Part shown: one piece after another, positions 807 to 19,774 of the stretch
Numbering within the stretch: the first letter of the stretch is position 1
How the letters are laid out: each line of letters begins with the position of its first letter
Virus record (IMG/VR): IMGVR_UViG_3300009061_000003
Span: 1-31,884 of that record
Direction: 5' to 3' (one strand)
Length of the DNA: 31,884 nucleotides
Source of the DNA: a virus
Made by a program: the position numbers and the translations under genes
The notes under the pieces: model-generated
Seen by the model: only the letters and a program-made list of their open reading frames with translations
The model's database searches: none
What the model was told of the DNA's origin: nothing

Positions 807-840
807 TGTATTTTTCTAAGATAATAAATGTGGAAATAAT

Positions 841-2345
841 GAGATTACTTAATTTCCATAACCGACTTTGGACCGTACCCTAACCGTTGCATGGTTGGTT
901 AATCCGTTATCCACATACCAGCTTCATCAGCTTGGCAGTATCGATCAACGCTGCCTTTTTTACCGTGTGGCGGTTCACGGGTCATATGTTGCTACTCGTC
1001 CTTTGATCTTCCGCCTGCCTTGCGGGCAGTTCAGAGGCGCTAACCCCTTACGTCTTCTCTCGAAACAACTACCTTTGCCTTGCGAGCATCAGTAGACCAA
1101 ATTCACCGAAGTGTTTGGTATTAAGCGTCTTTAACAACATACCGGAGCAGTCTTTCGCTTTAATCATATGCAATGAAGGGAATTGAACCCTCAACATCAA
1201 GTTCTGAAGACTTGTGCTCTACCTTTGAGCTACAGTTGCGATTTCTACAACATTCGATGTGCTACTCCAGTTGCTTCAACCTCTTTTGGAGGTCAAAATA
1301 CAACACACCGACTATCTTTCTCCTTGCGGGATACTCGACCGTATTTCAAGTTTCCGTCTTTATACTTTGCCTTCAACTCTAATACTGCCACTTTGCCTTT
1401 GCCTGCCAGCTCAGACTAGGTGACTACCTGTTAGTTTTCAGCATTTGTTAGTTTGGTATGTTATAAGAGGACGCCACCACAGCGTTTAGGACTCAGCGAT
1501 CGCCTCTGTCCATATCCTTTCGGACTTATAACACTAACTTACTGCCTACCGCCATCCCACTGACGGGGTTTGCTTTCGCCTCATTGTGCGAGTCAAACCT
1601 AACCCAGGCTTGCATGGCTTAGTCTCTTTCGATCCCCGGGGGCGTGTAGACCTCCCCCATTACCTCTTGGTTACCCAAGGGCAAGTATCCATGCTTTTAT
1701 TCTGTTGCTGGATTCTTGGTGAGGCGCTAACCTCGTTCTTTGTTTACGCATCTAACATAACTACCCAGATGCAACCAGCTGAATTCTCTCCGACTGCCGA
1801 AACAGTCGGGACAGGTATTTGGCTCAAGGCCTGGATCTGTCAACTCCATGGTCCGTCTAATGCTATCACGGCTTTCCGATAGCTACGATGTCGATGCTTA
1901 GCCGATCTATGTTATCATCAAACAAAGGGACCTAACTGAAGTCTTGACTAGTGAGTACGCAGGGTTATTTGCGACATGTTTTGTGTAAGCAAAGGGAAAG
2001 GAAAACAAACATCCCTGCGCACACAGTAGTCAAGACCTATGTCTTGTCATTCAGCTATAGTAGCTTTCAGGCTTATAATACCCTTGAGACTTGGGTTCAG
2101 CTAGTATTATGCCGGCCTACTTCCGTAAAACTCAATGGAAGCTACTACACGTAAATGACAAGACCATATTTTGCTGTCATCGGAAATACATTTTCAGCTA
2201 CGCACCACTCGCATCTTGATATTATCTCAACGTTTTGACTGTATAGTGTTTTCAACACAGCGCGGGATTTTCCCCTTCAGGCCCGACGCAGCGGATTATC
2301 CTGTGTTACTATAACCAGGCAGTGCGCATGTGGAAATGTATTTCC
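841..2345 (-). ncRNA. Giant structured RNA region (GOLLD-like candidate)
   Basis: About 1.5 kb without a convincing protein gene. It holds many long, nested perfect inverted repeats: 2182-2193 with 2334-2345 (12 bp), 2041-2051 with 2154-2164 (11 bp) enclosing 2060-2068 with 2137-2145 (9 bp, one wobble), 1941-1950 with 2027-2036 (10 bp) enclosing 1958-1964 with 2013-2019 (7 bp), 1790-1796 with 1803-1809 (7 bp), 1460-1467 with 1525-1532 (8 bp). A tRNA-like element (1170-1239, anticodon TCA) is embedded. Minus strand is inferred from that tRNA. GOLLD RNAs are known giant phage RNAs found near or around tRNA genes; assignment to that family is a guess from size and context, not from matched consensus. 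Exact ends are uncertain. Confidence 0.55.
1170..1239 (-). tRNA. tRNA-like, anticodon TCA (opal suppressor or Trp(UCA)?)
   Basis: D-arm GCTC/GAGC, a perfect anticodon stem CAAGT/ACTTG with loop CTTCAGA (U33, anticodon TCA), and T-arm GAGGG-TTCAATT-CCCTT. The acceptor stem is imperfect (GCAACTG against CATTGC needs a bulged C) and no CCA is encoded. It lies inside the structured RNA region. No tRNA-Trp(CCA) was found in the window, so this could be a Trp tRNA reading UGG and UGA, a UGA suppressor, or a tRNA-like domain of the large RNA. Confidence 0.5.
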
Positions 2346-2467
2346 TCTTGCGGTCTACTAAATTTTCAAAGAGCGTGTTGAACGTGTGTCTGTGTTACTG
2401 CTCAACTTGTTTTACCAATATAGCATTAGTATGTATGCGTGTCAATACTTTTTTTCAAAAAAATATG

Positions 2468-2532: not shown

Positions 2533-3162
2533 ATGAATATTTATCATCAGCCGTACACTTACCTGATTGGGTGGTCTAATCGTGACCGCTGGTATTACGG
2601 AGTCCGTTACGGTCAAAATTGTCATCCAAATGATTTATGGAAAACTTATTTTACCTCGTCAAAGTTAGTGGAACAAGAACGTCTTATGTTTGGAGAACCA
2701 GATATAATCGAAGTTCGTCGCGTATTTGATAGTCCACAAAAAGCGATGCTGTGGGAAGATAAGGTTCTAAAATTGTTGCAGGTTGATCAATCAAAACGGT
2801 GGATCAATGAGCGAGCTGGTAGTTGGCCGCTTGCGATAATGAGTGAGCAGGTAAAGAGTAAAATTTCTACTGCCCGTAAAGGAACACGGCACTCTGAAGA
2901 TACTAAAAAGAAGATGTCGGTGGCTCACACAGGAAAAGTATTGAGCAAGGAAACGAAGGAACGAATGAGTGAAGTGCGGCGCGGTATGAAACGAGGTCCG
3001 ATGTCCGAAGAACAAAAACGAGCCATTTCTGCTACAAAAAAGGGTAATCCTGGACCAACAAAATCTGAAGAAACTAAGAAAAAAATTGCTGAGTCTCTAC
3101 GTGGCAGAAAACATTCGGAAGAAGCTAAGGCTAAGATGCGTGGTCCTCGTAAGTGCAGGTAA
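2533..3162 (+). CDS. GIY-YIG homing endonuclease with NUMOD3 repeats
   Basis: 209 aa. The N-terminal domain (about 6-95) has the GIY-YIG-like pattern YTYLIGW...WYYGVRYGQNCHPNDLW...YFTSSK, known from phage free-standing nucleases. From about residue 105 on it carries several NUMOD3-type DNA-binding repeats (HSEDTKKKMS, LSKETKERMS, MSEEQKRAIS, KSEETKKKIA, HSEEAKAKM). The ATG at 2533 is preferred over an earlier in-frame ATG because CAGGAG lies just upstream. It is the only confident plus-strand gene, facing its neighbour, which suggests independent insertion. Confidence 0.85.
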   Translation: MNIYHQPYTYLIGWSNRDRWYYGVRYGQNCHPNDLWKTYFTSSKLVEQERLMFGEPDIIEVRRVFDSPQKAMLWEDKVLKLLQVDQSKRWINERAGSWPLAIMSEQVKSKISTARKGTRHSEDTKKKMSVAHTGKVLSKETKERMSEVRRGMKRGPMSEEQKRAISATKKGNPGPTKSEETKKKIAESLRGRKHSEEAKAKMRGPRKCR

Positions 3163-12593: not shown

Positions 12594-12671
12594 TGGTCGG
12601 GCGTGAAGGATTCGAACCTTCGCTCTTCTGCTCCCAAAGCAGACGGATTAACCAGACTTTCCTAACGCCCG
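12594..12671 (-). tRNA. tRNA-Pro(TGG)
   Basis: Acceptor CGGGCGT/ACGCCCG with the Pro-type C1-G72 pair, anticodon loop TTTGGGA, T-arm GAAGG-TTCGAAT-CCTTC, encoded CCA. The upstream HNH gene ends (TAG) inside its first 10 nt. Confidence 0.9.
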
Positions 12672-13261
12672 AACTTTTGTTCCATATATTTATATACTAC
12701 GTCTTCTACTAAATGTCGATACCTAGAATGCCAGTATTGGTGGTGTGTTGGGCACAACGGTACCAAGTTTTCAGGTCGATGATCTTTGCTATCTTCATTC
12801 AAGTGATGAACTTCAACTAAGTTATTTTCACCGCATATTACACAAGACATTTCATGATACCGGGCACAAATATCTCGATAGCGATTATCTTCTCTTAGTT
12901 GCTCATCTGTTTTGTATTGCAAACCGCCTTCATTACCATGTCTGAAGTATGTATTACTGCAAGCATAAGAACACGTCACTGCATAGTTATTCAGTATTTT
13001 TGAATCACAGACAGGACATTTTCTGATATTGATTGGGTTGTGAGGGCAGGACGCCTCATGTCTTCTTATGTTAGCTTTGCTGTATATCTTACCACAATGT
13101 TGACATTCGACATCAGGTATTCTTTTCTTGAACGTGTCTGGTGACACATGTCCTGGATAGAACCAGTGCGATCGGAATGCTTTTAAAGACTTATATGTCT
13201 TACCATTTCTTGGGCTTGTATAGGTCCCGTCATTGTTGCGATATAAATCTAAGTCATTCAC
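12662..13261 (-). CDS. HNH homing endonuclease with zinc fingers
   Basis: About 199 aa from GTG 13261. It carries paired zinc sites (CQHC...H...C; CPVC...CSYAC) and a C-terminal HNH core: CVICGENNLVEVHHLNEDS, then RPENLVPLCPTHHQYWH. GTG is preferred because it overlaps the preceding stop (GTGA); a longer TTG start exists. The stop codon TAG is formed by nt 8-10 of the tRNA-Pro gene, so the 3' end abuts that tRNA exactly. Free-standing homing endonuclease, probably spreading with its flanks. Confidence 0.9.
   Translation of the reverse strand: MNDLDLYRNNDGTYTSPRNGKTYKSLKAFRSHWFYPGHVSPDTFKKRIPDVECQHCGKIYSKANIRRHEASCPHNPINIRKCPVCDSKILNNYAVTCSYACSNTYFRHGNEGGLQYKTDEQLREDNRYRDICARYHEMSCVICGENNLVEVHHLNEDSKDHRPENLVPLCPTHHQYWHSRYRHLVEDVVYKYMEQKFGR
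12687..12694 (-). promoter_or_regulatory. T4-type late promoter (TATAAATA) before tRNA-Pro
   Basis: Perfect TATAAATA on the minus strand, inside the 3' end of the HNH gene and 15 nt before the tRNA-Pro 5' end. Confidence 0.55.
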
Positions 13262-13368
13262 AAATCTACTATAACACGTTTCAAAGTAAAGGTCGAGCCC
13301 CAACCACCATGTACATCTAGCAAATCTTGTAGACTTTCTTCAAATGCGCGAACCGCTTCTTCGTCCAT
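13258..13368 (-). CDS. Small ORF, separate gene or TGA-readthrough extension
   Basis: 36 aa (MDEEAVRAFEESLQDLLDVHGG...). GAAGG lies about 10 nt before the ATG. The frame is open back to the TGA stop of the 13423-13989 gene and is in the same frame with it, so it could also be a C-terminal extension made by UGA readthrough. Its own TGA overlaps the GTG start of the HNH gene. Confidence 0.45.
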   Translation of the reverse strand: MDEEAVRAFEESLQDLLDVHGGWGSTFTLKRVIVDL

Positions 13369-16247: not shown

Positions 16248-16340
16248 TGGCGGAGGCGCTGAGAATCGAACTCAATGGAAGGGTTACTCCCACACTTGCC
16301 TTAGCAGGGCAGCCCTGGCACCAACCAGGTTGTCACCTCC
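16248..16340 (-). tRNA. tRNA-Ser(GCT)
   Basis: GGAGGTG/CGCCTCC acceptor, G73, CCA, loop CTGCTAA, long variable arm as expected for Ser. Confidence 0.92.
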
Positions 16341-19000: not shown

Positions 19001-19774
19001 TCATACCTTTCTTTTGTATATACGTCCTTTCTTCCATCCTTCTGGTATGGAAGTTGCCATACGGCTTTCGGATCCATTATTGATCCAAAACTTTCCTTTT
19101 TGAGATGGAGGAATAGTATCTATCGCTCTACCCCTTTTCCATCCTTCAGGAATATCTTCATTTTCACATAGCAGTATATTGCTTACGCCATTGGTTATCC
19201 AAGAACTCTTATCTTCTGTAAGGCGACGATGCTGTTGTGCTGCTATCATATTTTCTGTATTGGATTTAGGCTTACGAAGTTTTTCTTTTGTTTCTTCAGT
19301 ATGCTTGAACCCTATCATTCTTTGTCGCATTTTTTCAACAGTCTCAGCAGAAAGTTTTTTACCGAGATTGACTTTACGTAAATGTTCTTTTTCAGCCTCT
19401 GTTCTAGGGCGTGAGTTTGCCGGGTTTGGCTTTCCCTTCATTCTTTCAGAAATAAGTTTTCTTGTGTTGTCAGTATGTTTGCGGCCTAGATTAGTGCCTG
19501 GCGGAGACCCACCATCACCTGTTTCTGGCTTTAGGTTTGACCAGTTATCATCTTCAACAACGTTATAGAGATCGCTGTAATATTCACCAAGACGTCTTAT
19601 ATCGTTTTTGTTTTTACATTCAGCTAATATTTCTGTTGTTACATCATTGCCATGCTTTCTAAGATGTAGCTTCCACAAGGTCCCTGATCCATTGTATTTC
19701 AAAGGATCTTTAGACGTGTAACCAAGATATTTACGCCCAGTTACATTATGTGTTTTGATATAGAGATAAAACAT
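19001..19774 (-). CDS. GIY-YIG homing endonuclease with NUMOD3 repeats
   Basis: 257 aa. N-terminal GIY-YIG-like domain: FYLYIKTHNVTGRKYLGYTS, then YNGSGTLWK and later a catalytic-type LGEYYSDLYN. NUMOD3-type repeats follow (HTDNTRKLIS, LSAETVEKMR, HTEETKEKLR), then two copies of a W-I-N-N-G...IPEGWKRGR type segment. The gene lies between a GNAT-like gene and a conserved gene whose 5' end looks damaged. Confidence 0.88.
   Translation of the reverse strand: MFYLYIKTHNVTGRKYLGYTSKDPLKYNGSGTLWKLHLRKHGNDVTTEILAECKNKNDIRRLGEYYSDLYNVVEDDNWSNLKPETGDGGSPPGTNLGRKHTDNTRKLISERMKGKPNPANSRPRTEAEKEHLRKVNLGKKLSAETVEKMRQRMIGFKHTEETKEKLRKPKSNTENMIAAQQHRRLTEDKSSWITNGVSNILLCENEDIPEGWKRGRAIDTIPPSQKGKFWINNGSESRMATSIPEGWKKGRIYKRKV

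What the first reader, a model, noticed from the sequence alone, without database searches (positions are those of the whole stretch)
841..2345. Giant structured RNA with an embedded tRNA-like domain
About 1.5 kb lacks convincing genes but has at least six long, nested perfect or near-perfect stems (12, 11, 10, 9, 8 and 7 bp), some more than 100 nt apart. It contains a TCA-anticodon tRNA-like element. Size, phage context and tRNA association recall GOLLD RNAs, but I cannot match a consensus, so it may be a divergent GOLLD or a new class.
Basis: partly seen in the sequence, partly recalled or inferred. Interest (0 to 1): 0.85.

Follow-up and report, generated by a model that had tools for sequence, protein, structure and literature searches.

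The report
Phage GOLLD RNA with pseudo-tRNA
This stretch of a phage genome makes a giant cage-forming RNA called GOLLD whose built-in "tRNA" has kept its shape but apparently lost its decoding job, and it starts with a signal normally used to make ribosomal RNA, which gives new handles on what these unexplained RNAs do.

Summary
The region is a GOLLD RNA (Rfam RF02032), on the minus strand: full-length 3' domain at 1313-836, 175.3 bits against a gathering score of 150, E 7e-48. The inferred transcript is about 1,575 nt: consensus promoter (2445-2417), boxA-like element (2375-2361), 670-nt structured leader, GOLLD 5' domain, GOLLD 3' domain.

Four points go beyond identification.
(1) The tRNA in the variable linker is a non-decoding tRNA-like domain. 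In 98 non-redundant phage GOLLDs I found 77 such inserts in the same place. D, anticodon and T arms covary strongly. The outer acceptor stem is broken and anticodons are hypervariable, even between GOLLDs 90-95% identical.
(2) An rRNA-type boxA lies upstream on the GOLLD strand in 38 of 85 non-redundant GOLLDs and on the opposite strand in none.
(3) The leader contains a 133-nt RNA domain absent from Rfam. Across three phages 13 of its pairs have compensatory changes. Its third copy sits inside a permuted tmRNA gene.
(4) The UCA anticodon is not evidence of a working suppressor: TGA ends 14 of 34 likely genes here, and the closest relative has an 8-nt anticodon loop.

Cage assembly is inferred from the published GOLLD cryo-EM structure. 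The function is unproven.

The parts
2417..2445 (-). Sigma-70 type promoter TTGACA-17-TATATT with extended TG; inferred start near 2410
   Evidence: 11 of 12 consensus matches, best site in the region; promoters in the same place upstream of many other GOLLDs
2361..2375 (-). boxA-like antitermination element CGCTCTTTGAAAATT
   Evidence: only GYTCTTTRANA match in the window; same-strand match upstream of 38/85 non-redundant GOLLDs, 0/85 on the opposite strand; 0.40 per kb against 0.016 per kb elsewhere
2182..2345 (-). Leader domain X closed by a 12-bp stem (core 2199-2331)
   Evidence: 13 of 41 pairs with compensatory changes in 3 sequences, 99.2% of cells paired, 0/500 shuffles; no Rfam match up to E 5
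2041..2163 (-). Extra long hairpin of the leader (11-bp outer stem), absent from the closest relative
   Evidence: fold; comparison with L350
1941..2038 (-). Leader hairpin; contains TTTCCTTTCCCTTTGCTTACACAAA (2004-1980), identical in the closest relative although the stems differ
1705..1786 (-). 82-nt structured element, 86% identical to a spacer inside the tRNA array of relative G152 (107638-107558)
1314..1704 (-). GOLLD 5' domain
   Evidence: 61-81% identity over up to 323 nt with the 5' domain of more than 40 other GOLLD loci; 5' boundary approximate
836..1313 (-). GOLLD 3' domain (RF02032, model 1-416)
   Evidence: 175.3 bits, gathering 150, E 7.1e-48
1169..1239 (-). tRNA-like domain in the variable linker, anticodon loop CUUCAGA, imperfect acceptor stem, no CCA
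   Evidence: same position in 77 of 98 non-redundant GOLLDs

Best explanation
A phage-encoded GOLLD RNA of about 1.57 kb, transcribed on the minus strand. Shown by sequence: it is a GOLLD; it has a promoter and an rRNA-type boxA match; its leader is a conserved structured domain; its linker carries a tRNA-shaped domain selected for fold and not for a fixed anticodon or a full acceptor stem. Inferred: boxA recruits host NusB/S10 (and SuhB), as in rRNA operons, so that RNA polymerase completes this long untranslated RNA without Rho termination; the RNA then folds and assembles into the GOLLD 14-mer cage, whose linker lies in the lumen; so up to 14 tRNA-like domains face inside and act as tethered tRNA mimics that hold a host or phage tRNA-binding factor. 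They are not a supply of decoding tRNA. Which factor is held is not known.
For: GOLLD identity. tRNA-like in the same linker place in 77/98 non-redundant GOLLDs. D, anticodon and T stems are paired in about 91-100% of inserts at every position (96% or more at 13 of 14), against shuffles of about 45-70% at the variable positions, with up to 6 pair types. Acceptor pairs 3-70, 2-71 and 1-72 are paired in only 65, 39 and 59% (94, 94 and 90% in free tRNAs of the same contigs). Complete acceptor: 14.5% of 62 against 86% of 779 with good arms. Non-7-nt anticodon loops: 7 of 75. Nearest GOLLDs at 90-95% identity share the anticodon in 3 of 18 cases. The closest relative has loop CUUUAGGA. TGA ends 14 of 34 likely genes. 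boxA; consensus GYTCTTTAANA from PMC5725501. In some GOLLDs tRNA genes lie between boxA and GOLLD, and boxA also leads tRNA clusters in two large phages. Linker in the cage lumen: PMC12286853.
Against: No expression, Nus-binding or cage data exist for this RNA; 14-mer assembly is carried over from one other GOLLD (env-38, 833 nt) without this leader. 47 of 85 upstream regions had no boxA match to the pattern used. A few embedded tRNAs have complete acceptors and some encode CCA (L212, L097), so a minority may be working tRNAs. The loci came from pattern searches, so they are not a random sample of GOLLDs.
Confidence: 0.62

Rival explanations
1. The embedded element is a working tRNA (a UGA suppressor) cut out of the linker by RNase P and tRNase, with GOLLD as its carrier.
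For: ARAGORN and Rfam score it as tRNA (59 bits); 36 other tRNA genes in the window; D, anticodon and T arms intact; two inserts elsewhere encode CCA.
Against: Best acceptor register pairs 4 of 7 positions and no CCA; TGA ends 14 of 34 likely genes, so suppression would extend many of the phage's own proteins; closest relative has an 8-nt anticodon loop; anticodon changes between near-identical GOLLDs; in Mycobacterium the pseudo-tRNA inside GOLLD was not detectably expressed (PMC6582537).
Confidence: 0.12
2. The tRNA-like domain is a decoy for host tRNA-cleaving defence enzymes or for tRNA-modifying enzymes; its variable anticodon arm reflects an arms race.
For: Anticodon arm is hypervariable with stems kept by compensatory change; NUU anticodons are 55% of embedded and 9% of free tRNAs; anticodon changes fastest between close relatives.
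Against: No defence target identified; a domain inside a closed cage is a poor decoy unless it acts before assembly; the A/U-rich loop may be mutational bias or ancestry.
Confidence: 0.15
3. The tRNA-like inserts are passive leftovers: tRNA genes from the neighbouring array recombine into the tolerant linker and decay.
For: Linker is disordered and variable (PMC12286853); GOLLD lies in a large tRNA array; different anticodons in related GOLLDs; one linker (L139) holds a permuted tRNA.
Against: Decay would not keep D, anticodon and T stems about 91-100% paired through compensatory changes in 75 inserts, nor break specifically the outer acceptor pairs.
Confidence: 0.18

Closest known systems
GOLLD RNA, Rfam RF02032 (cryo-EM of env-38, PMC12286853)
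   Same: Full-length match to the conserved 3' domain; variable linker in the same place; phage and tRNA-array setting; less conserved 5' domain
   Different: About 1.57 kb against 833 nt; 670-nt leader with a conserved new domain; tRNA-like domain in the linker (reported in some GOLLDs); boxA leader, for which I found no report in the papers searched
GOLLD RNAs of alphaproteobacterial phages MD18, DSS3_MAL1 and (by BLAST, not CM-tested) CcrKarma
   Same: Same linker position of the tRNA-like domain; tRNA arrays; annotated there as tRNA-Arg or tRNA-Lys
   Different: Shorter 5' part; other anticodons; MD18 and MAL1 carry a permuted tmRNA just downstream
Mycobacterial GOLLD with pseudo-tRNA (PMC6582537)
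   Same: tRNA-like gene inside GOLLD, not detectably expressed on its own
   Different: Different host group; in the passages read, no survey of arms, anticodons or leader
rRNA operon leader boxA (NusB/S10 antitermination; PMC5725501, PMC4807359)
   Same: Sequence close to the boxA consensus just after a strong promoter of a long untranslated RNA
   Different: In a phage, in front of GOLLD or tRNA clusters; function not tested

Membership tests
GOLLD (RF02032) | Covariance-model score of the conserved 3' domain above the gathering score | tested here: met
   175.3 bits against 150, model 1-416
GOLLD (RF02032) | Less conserved 5' domain upstream of the 3' domain | tested here: met
   61-81% identity with the 5' region of more than 40 GOLLD loci
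GOLLD (RF02032) | Phage or prophage setting, often near tRNA islands | tested here: met
   virus record; 37 tRNA genes including the insert
GOLLD (RF02032) | Assembly into a closed 14-mer | not testable with these tools
   needs cryo-EM or mass photometry
Functional tRNA | Complete 7-bp acceptor stem and CCA | tested here: not met
   4 of 7 pairs in the best register, no CCA
Functional tRNA | Anticodon kept among close relatives | tested here: not met
   closest relative has an 8-nt loop; 3 of 18 neighbours at 90-95% identity share the anticodon
boxA antitermination leader | Match to the published consensus GYTCTTTAANA | tested here: inconclusive
   window has GCTCTTTGAAA, differing at one position (A to G) from the gammaproteobacterial consensus; 22 of 85 GOLLDs match it exactly, 38 of 85 with R at that position
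boxA antitermination leader | Binding of NusB/S10 and antitermination | not testable with these tools
   needs biochemistry
ROOL, OLE, HEARO | Rfam match | tested here: not met
   no match at the gathering score in the window or up to E 5 in 1250-2700

The most novel reading that the evidence does not exclude
A large class of phage GOLLD cages displays a hypervariable, non-decoding tRNA mimic inside the cage, made from rRNA-style antiterminated operons, as a device that captures or decoys tRNA-acting host proteins during infection; the leader carries a second mobile RNA module (domain X) shared with a permuted tmRNA gene.
Probability: 0.25. Interest if true: 0.9.

Novelty: new variant of a known kind. 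Interest (0 to 1): 0.6.

Why it matters
GOLLD cages have been solved in 3D but have no known function. Two findings make the question testable. The lumen-facing tRNA-like domain is under selection for shape, not decoding, so a protein partner that reads tRNA shape can be looked for. An rRNA-type boxA in front of GOLLD predicts that its synthesis depends on host Nus factors, which can be tested in one reporter experiment. The leader domain X is a new structured RNA with compensatory changes.

Tried and rejected
New RNA class: rejected by the Rfam GOLLD match. ROOL/OLE/HEARO: no match. Recoded TGA (code 4) to explain the UCA anticodon: rejected, 14 of 34 likely genes end in TGA. Group I intron as the source of the 670-nt leader: no match. 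Homologues of the leader in named phages: none at E up to 1. First pattern scan, 120 stretches, was too loose, mostly chance. A second motif scan for GOLLD found nothing. Doubled-linker test for further permuted tRNAs found none; L139 itself was seen only by joining its halves by hand. Domain X model over 96 loci found only the three founders plus two short hairpin matches in L229 and L299, both in GOLLD leaders.

Full report
Identification. cmscan of the window finds GOLLD (RF02032) at 1313-836 on the minus strand, model 1-416, 175.3 bits, gathering 150, E 7.1e-48 (confirmed). The insertion in the model's linker is a tRNA match at 1239-1169 (59 bits), anticodon UCA. Upstream, about 1614-1316 is 61-81% identical to the 5' domains of more than 40 other GOLLD loci, so the 5' domain is also that of GOLLD. 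Small ORFs in the region have no PHROGs match.

Transcript. The best promoter of the region is TTGACA-17-TATATT at 2445-2417 minus. About 35 nt after its start point, as I infer it, lies CGCTCTTTGAAAATT (2375-2361), which resembles boxA of rRNA leaders (published gammaproteobacterial consensus GYTCTTTAANA, PMC5725501; one position differs here). In 85 non-redundant GOLLDs with enough upstream sequence, GYTCTTTRANA occurs upstream on the GOLLD strand in 38 and on the opposite strand in none; the density is 0.40 per kb there and 0.016 per kb elsewhere in the same contigs. The unmodified published consensus gives 22 against 0. In many loci it follows a promoter-like -35 hexamer by roughly 45-70 nt. 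In some GOLLDs tRNA genes lie between boxA and GOLLD, and two large phages use the same promoter-boxA unit in front of tRNA clusters. A library search for GOLLD with boxA listed no paper naming both among its best hits. Antitermination is inferred, not shown.

Relatives. Pattern scans and a profile gave 193 loci with the GOLLD 3' domain, the window among them; whole-record searches with RF02032 confirmed nearly all those tested. Clustering at 92% identity left 98 groups. The closest relative of the window is G152, a 142-kb contig.

The tRNA-like domain. 77 of 98 groups have a tRNA-like insert at the same place. Of 75 parsed, D, anticodon and T stems are nearly always paired, with several pair types per position and far above shuffles at the variable positions; the four acceptor pairs next to the elbow are also kept (92-100%), but the outer three are paired in only 65, 39 and 59%. 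Free tRNAs of the same contigs keep them in 90-94%. With the other arms required to be good, a full acceptor stem is present in 14.5% of 62 inserts and 86% of 779 free tRNAs. Anticodons are of more than 20 kinds, 7 of 75 loops are not 7 nt, and NUU makes up 55% (9% in free tRNAs). Nearest neighbours with 90-95% identical 3' domains share the anticodon in 3 of 18 cases and the anticodon stem in 2 of 18. In the window, TGA ends 14 of 34 likely genes, and G152 has an 8-nt loop CUUUAGGA with a changed but paired stem. I conclude that the fold is selected and decoding is not. The presence of tRNAs in some GOLLD linkers, the disordered lumen position of the linker and a pseudo-tRNA in mycobacterial GOLLD were reported before (PMC12286853; PMC6582537). 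The survey and its outcome are, as far as I could check, new; the original GOLLD paper and the 2020 mycobacterial GOLLD paper were not in the library.

The leader. Between boxA and the 5' domain the window has about 670 nt; in relatives this part ranges from about 15 nt upwards. Its first part (2331-2199) is a structured domain found in G152 and in L353. RNAalifold on the three gives 41 pairs, 13 with compensatory changes; 99.2% of cells paired, 0 of 500 shuffles as good, slid controls 28-49%. In L353 this domain lies inside a permuted tmRNA gene, between the tRNA-like part and the mRNA-like part. It has no Rfam match. Its hairpin motif TTGAGATAATATCA also occurs in the leaders of L229 and L299 and nowhere else in 6.4 Mb counted over both strands. 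A second hairpin (2038-1941) keeps 25 identical nucleotides in its loop region in G152 while the stems differ. An 82-nt element (1786-1705) is 86% identical to a spacer in the tRNA array of G152.

Mechanism. Shown: GOLLD identity, conserved fold of the tRNA-like domain without conserved decoding features, enrichment of boxA-like sequence, covarying leader. Inferred: Nus-dependent synthesis, 14-mer cage, lumenal tRNA mimics that hold a tRNA-binding factor. Limits: loci were found by patterns and are not a random sample; related sequences inflate counts, although redundancy was reduced; repeated recapture of tRNAs could also keep arms paired and was not excluded by a tree.

Noticed in passing
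L139 (and L186), GOLLD linker: A circularly permuted tRNA: T arm, acceptor 3' strand and CCA come before acceptor 5' strand, D arm and anticodon arm; the joined halves read as tRNA-Ser with a perfect 7-bp acceptor.
   Followed up: partly
L353 8720-9278: Permuted tmRNA whose intervening part looks duplicated in tandem and carries domain X.
   Followed up: partly
L354 (two sites), L355: Promoter plus boxA-like element leading tRNA clusters without GOLLD in large phages, as in rRNA operons.
   Followed up: partly
window 2536-3162 (+), 19001-19774 (-), 12662-13303 (-): Putative homing endonucleases (NUMOD3 or HNH) scattered in the tRNA array, one next to the 5' end of the GOLLD gene.
   Followed up: no
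window 16252-16340 (-): Rfam tRNA-Sec match just above its cut-off (47.4 against 47) that ARAGORN does not report; identity unclear.
   Followed up: no
L245 and L273, between boxA and GOLLD 5' domain: Leader inserts with T-arm-like sequence inside long stems; possibly further tRNA-like elements.
   Followed up: no
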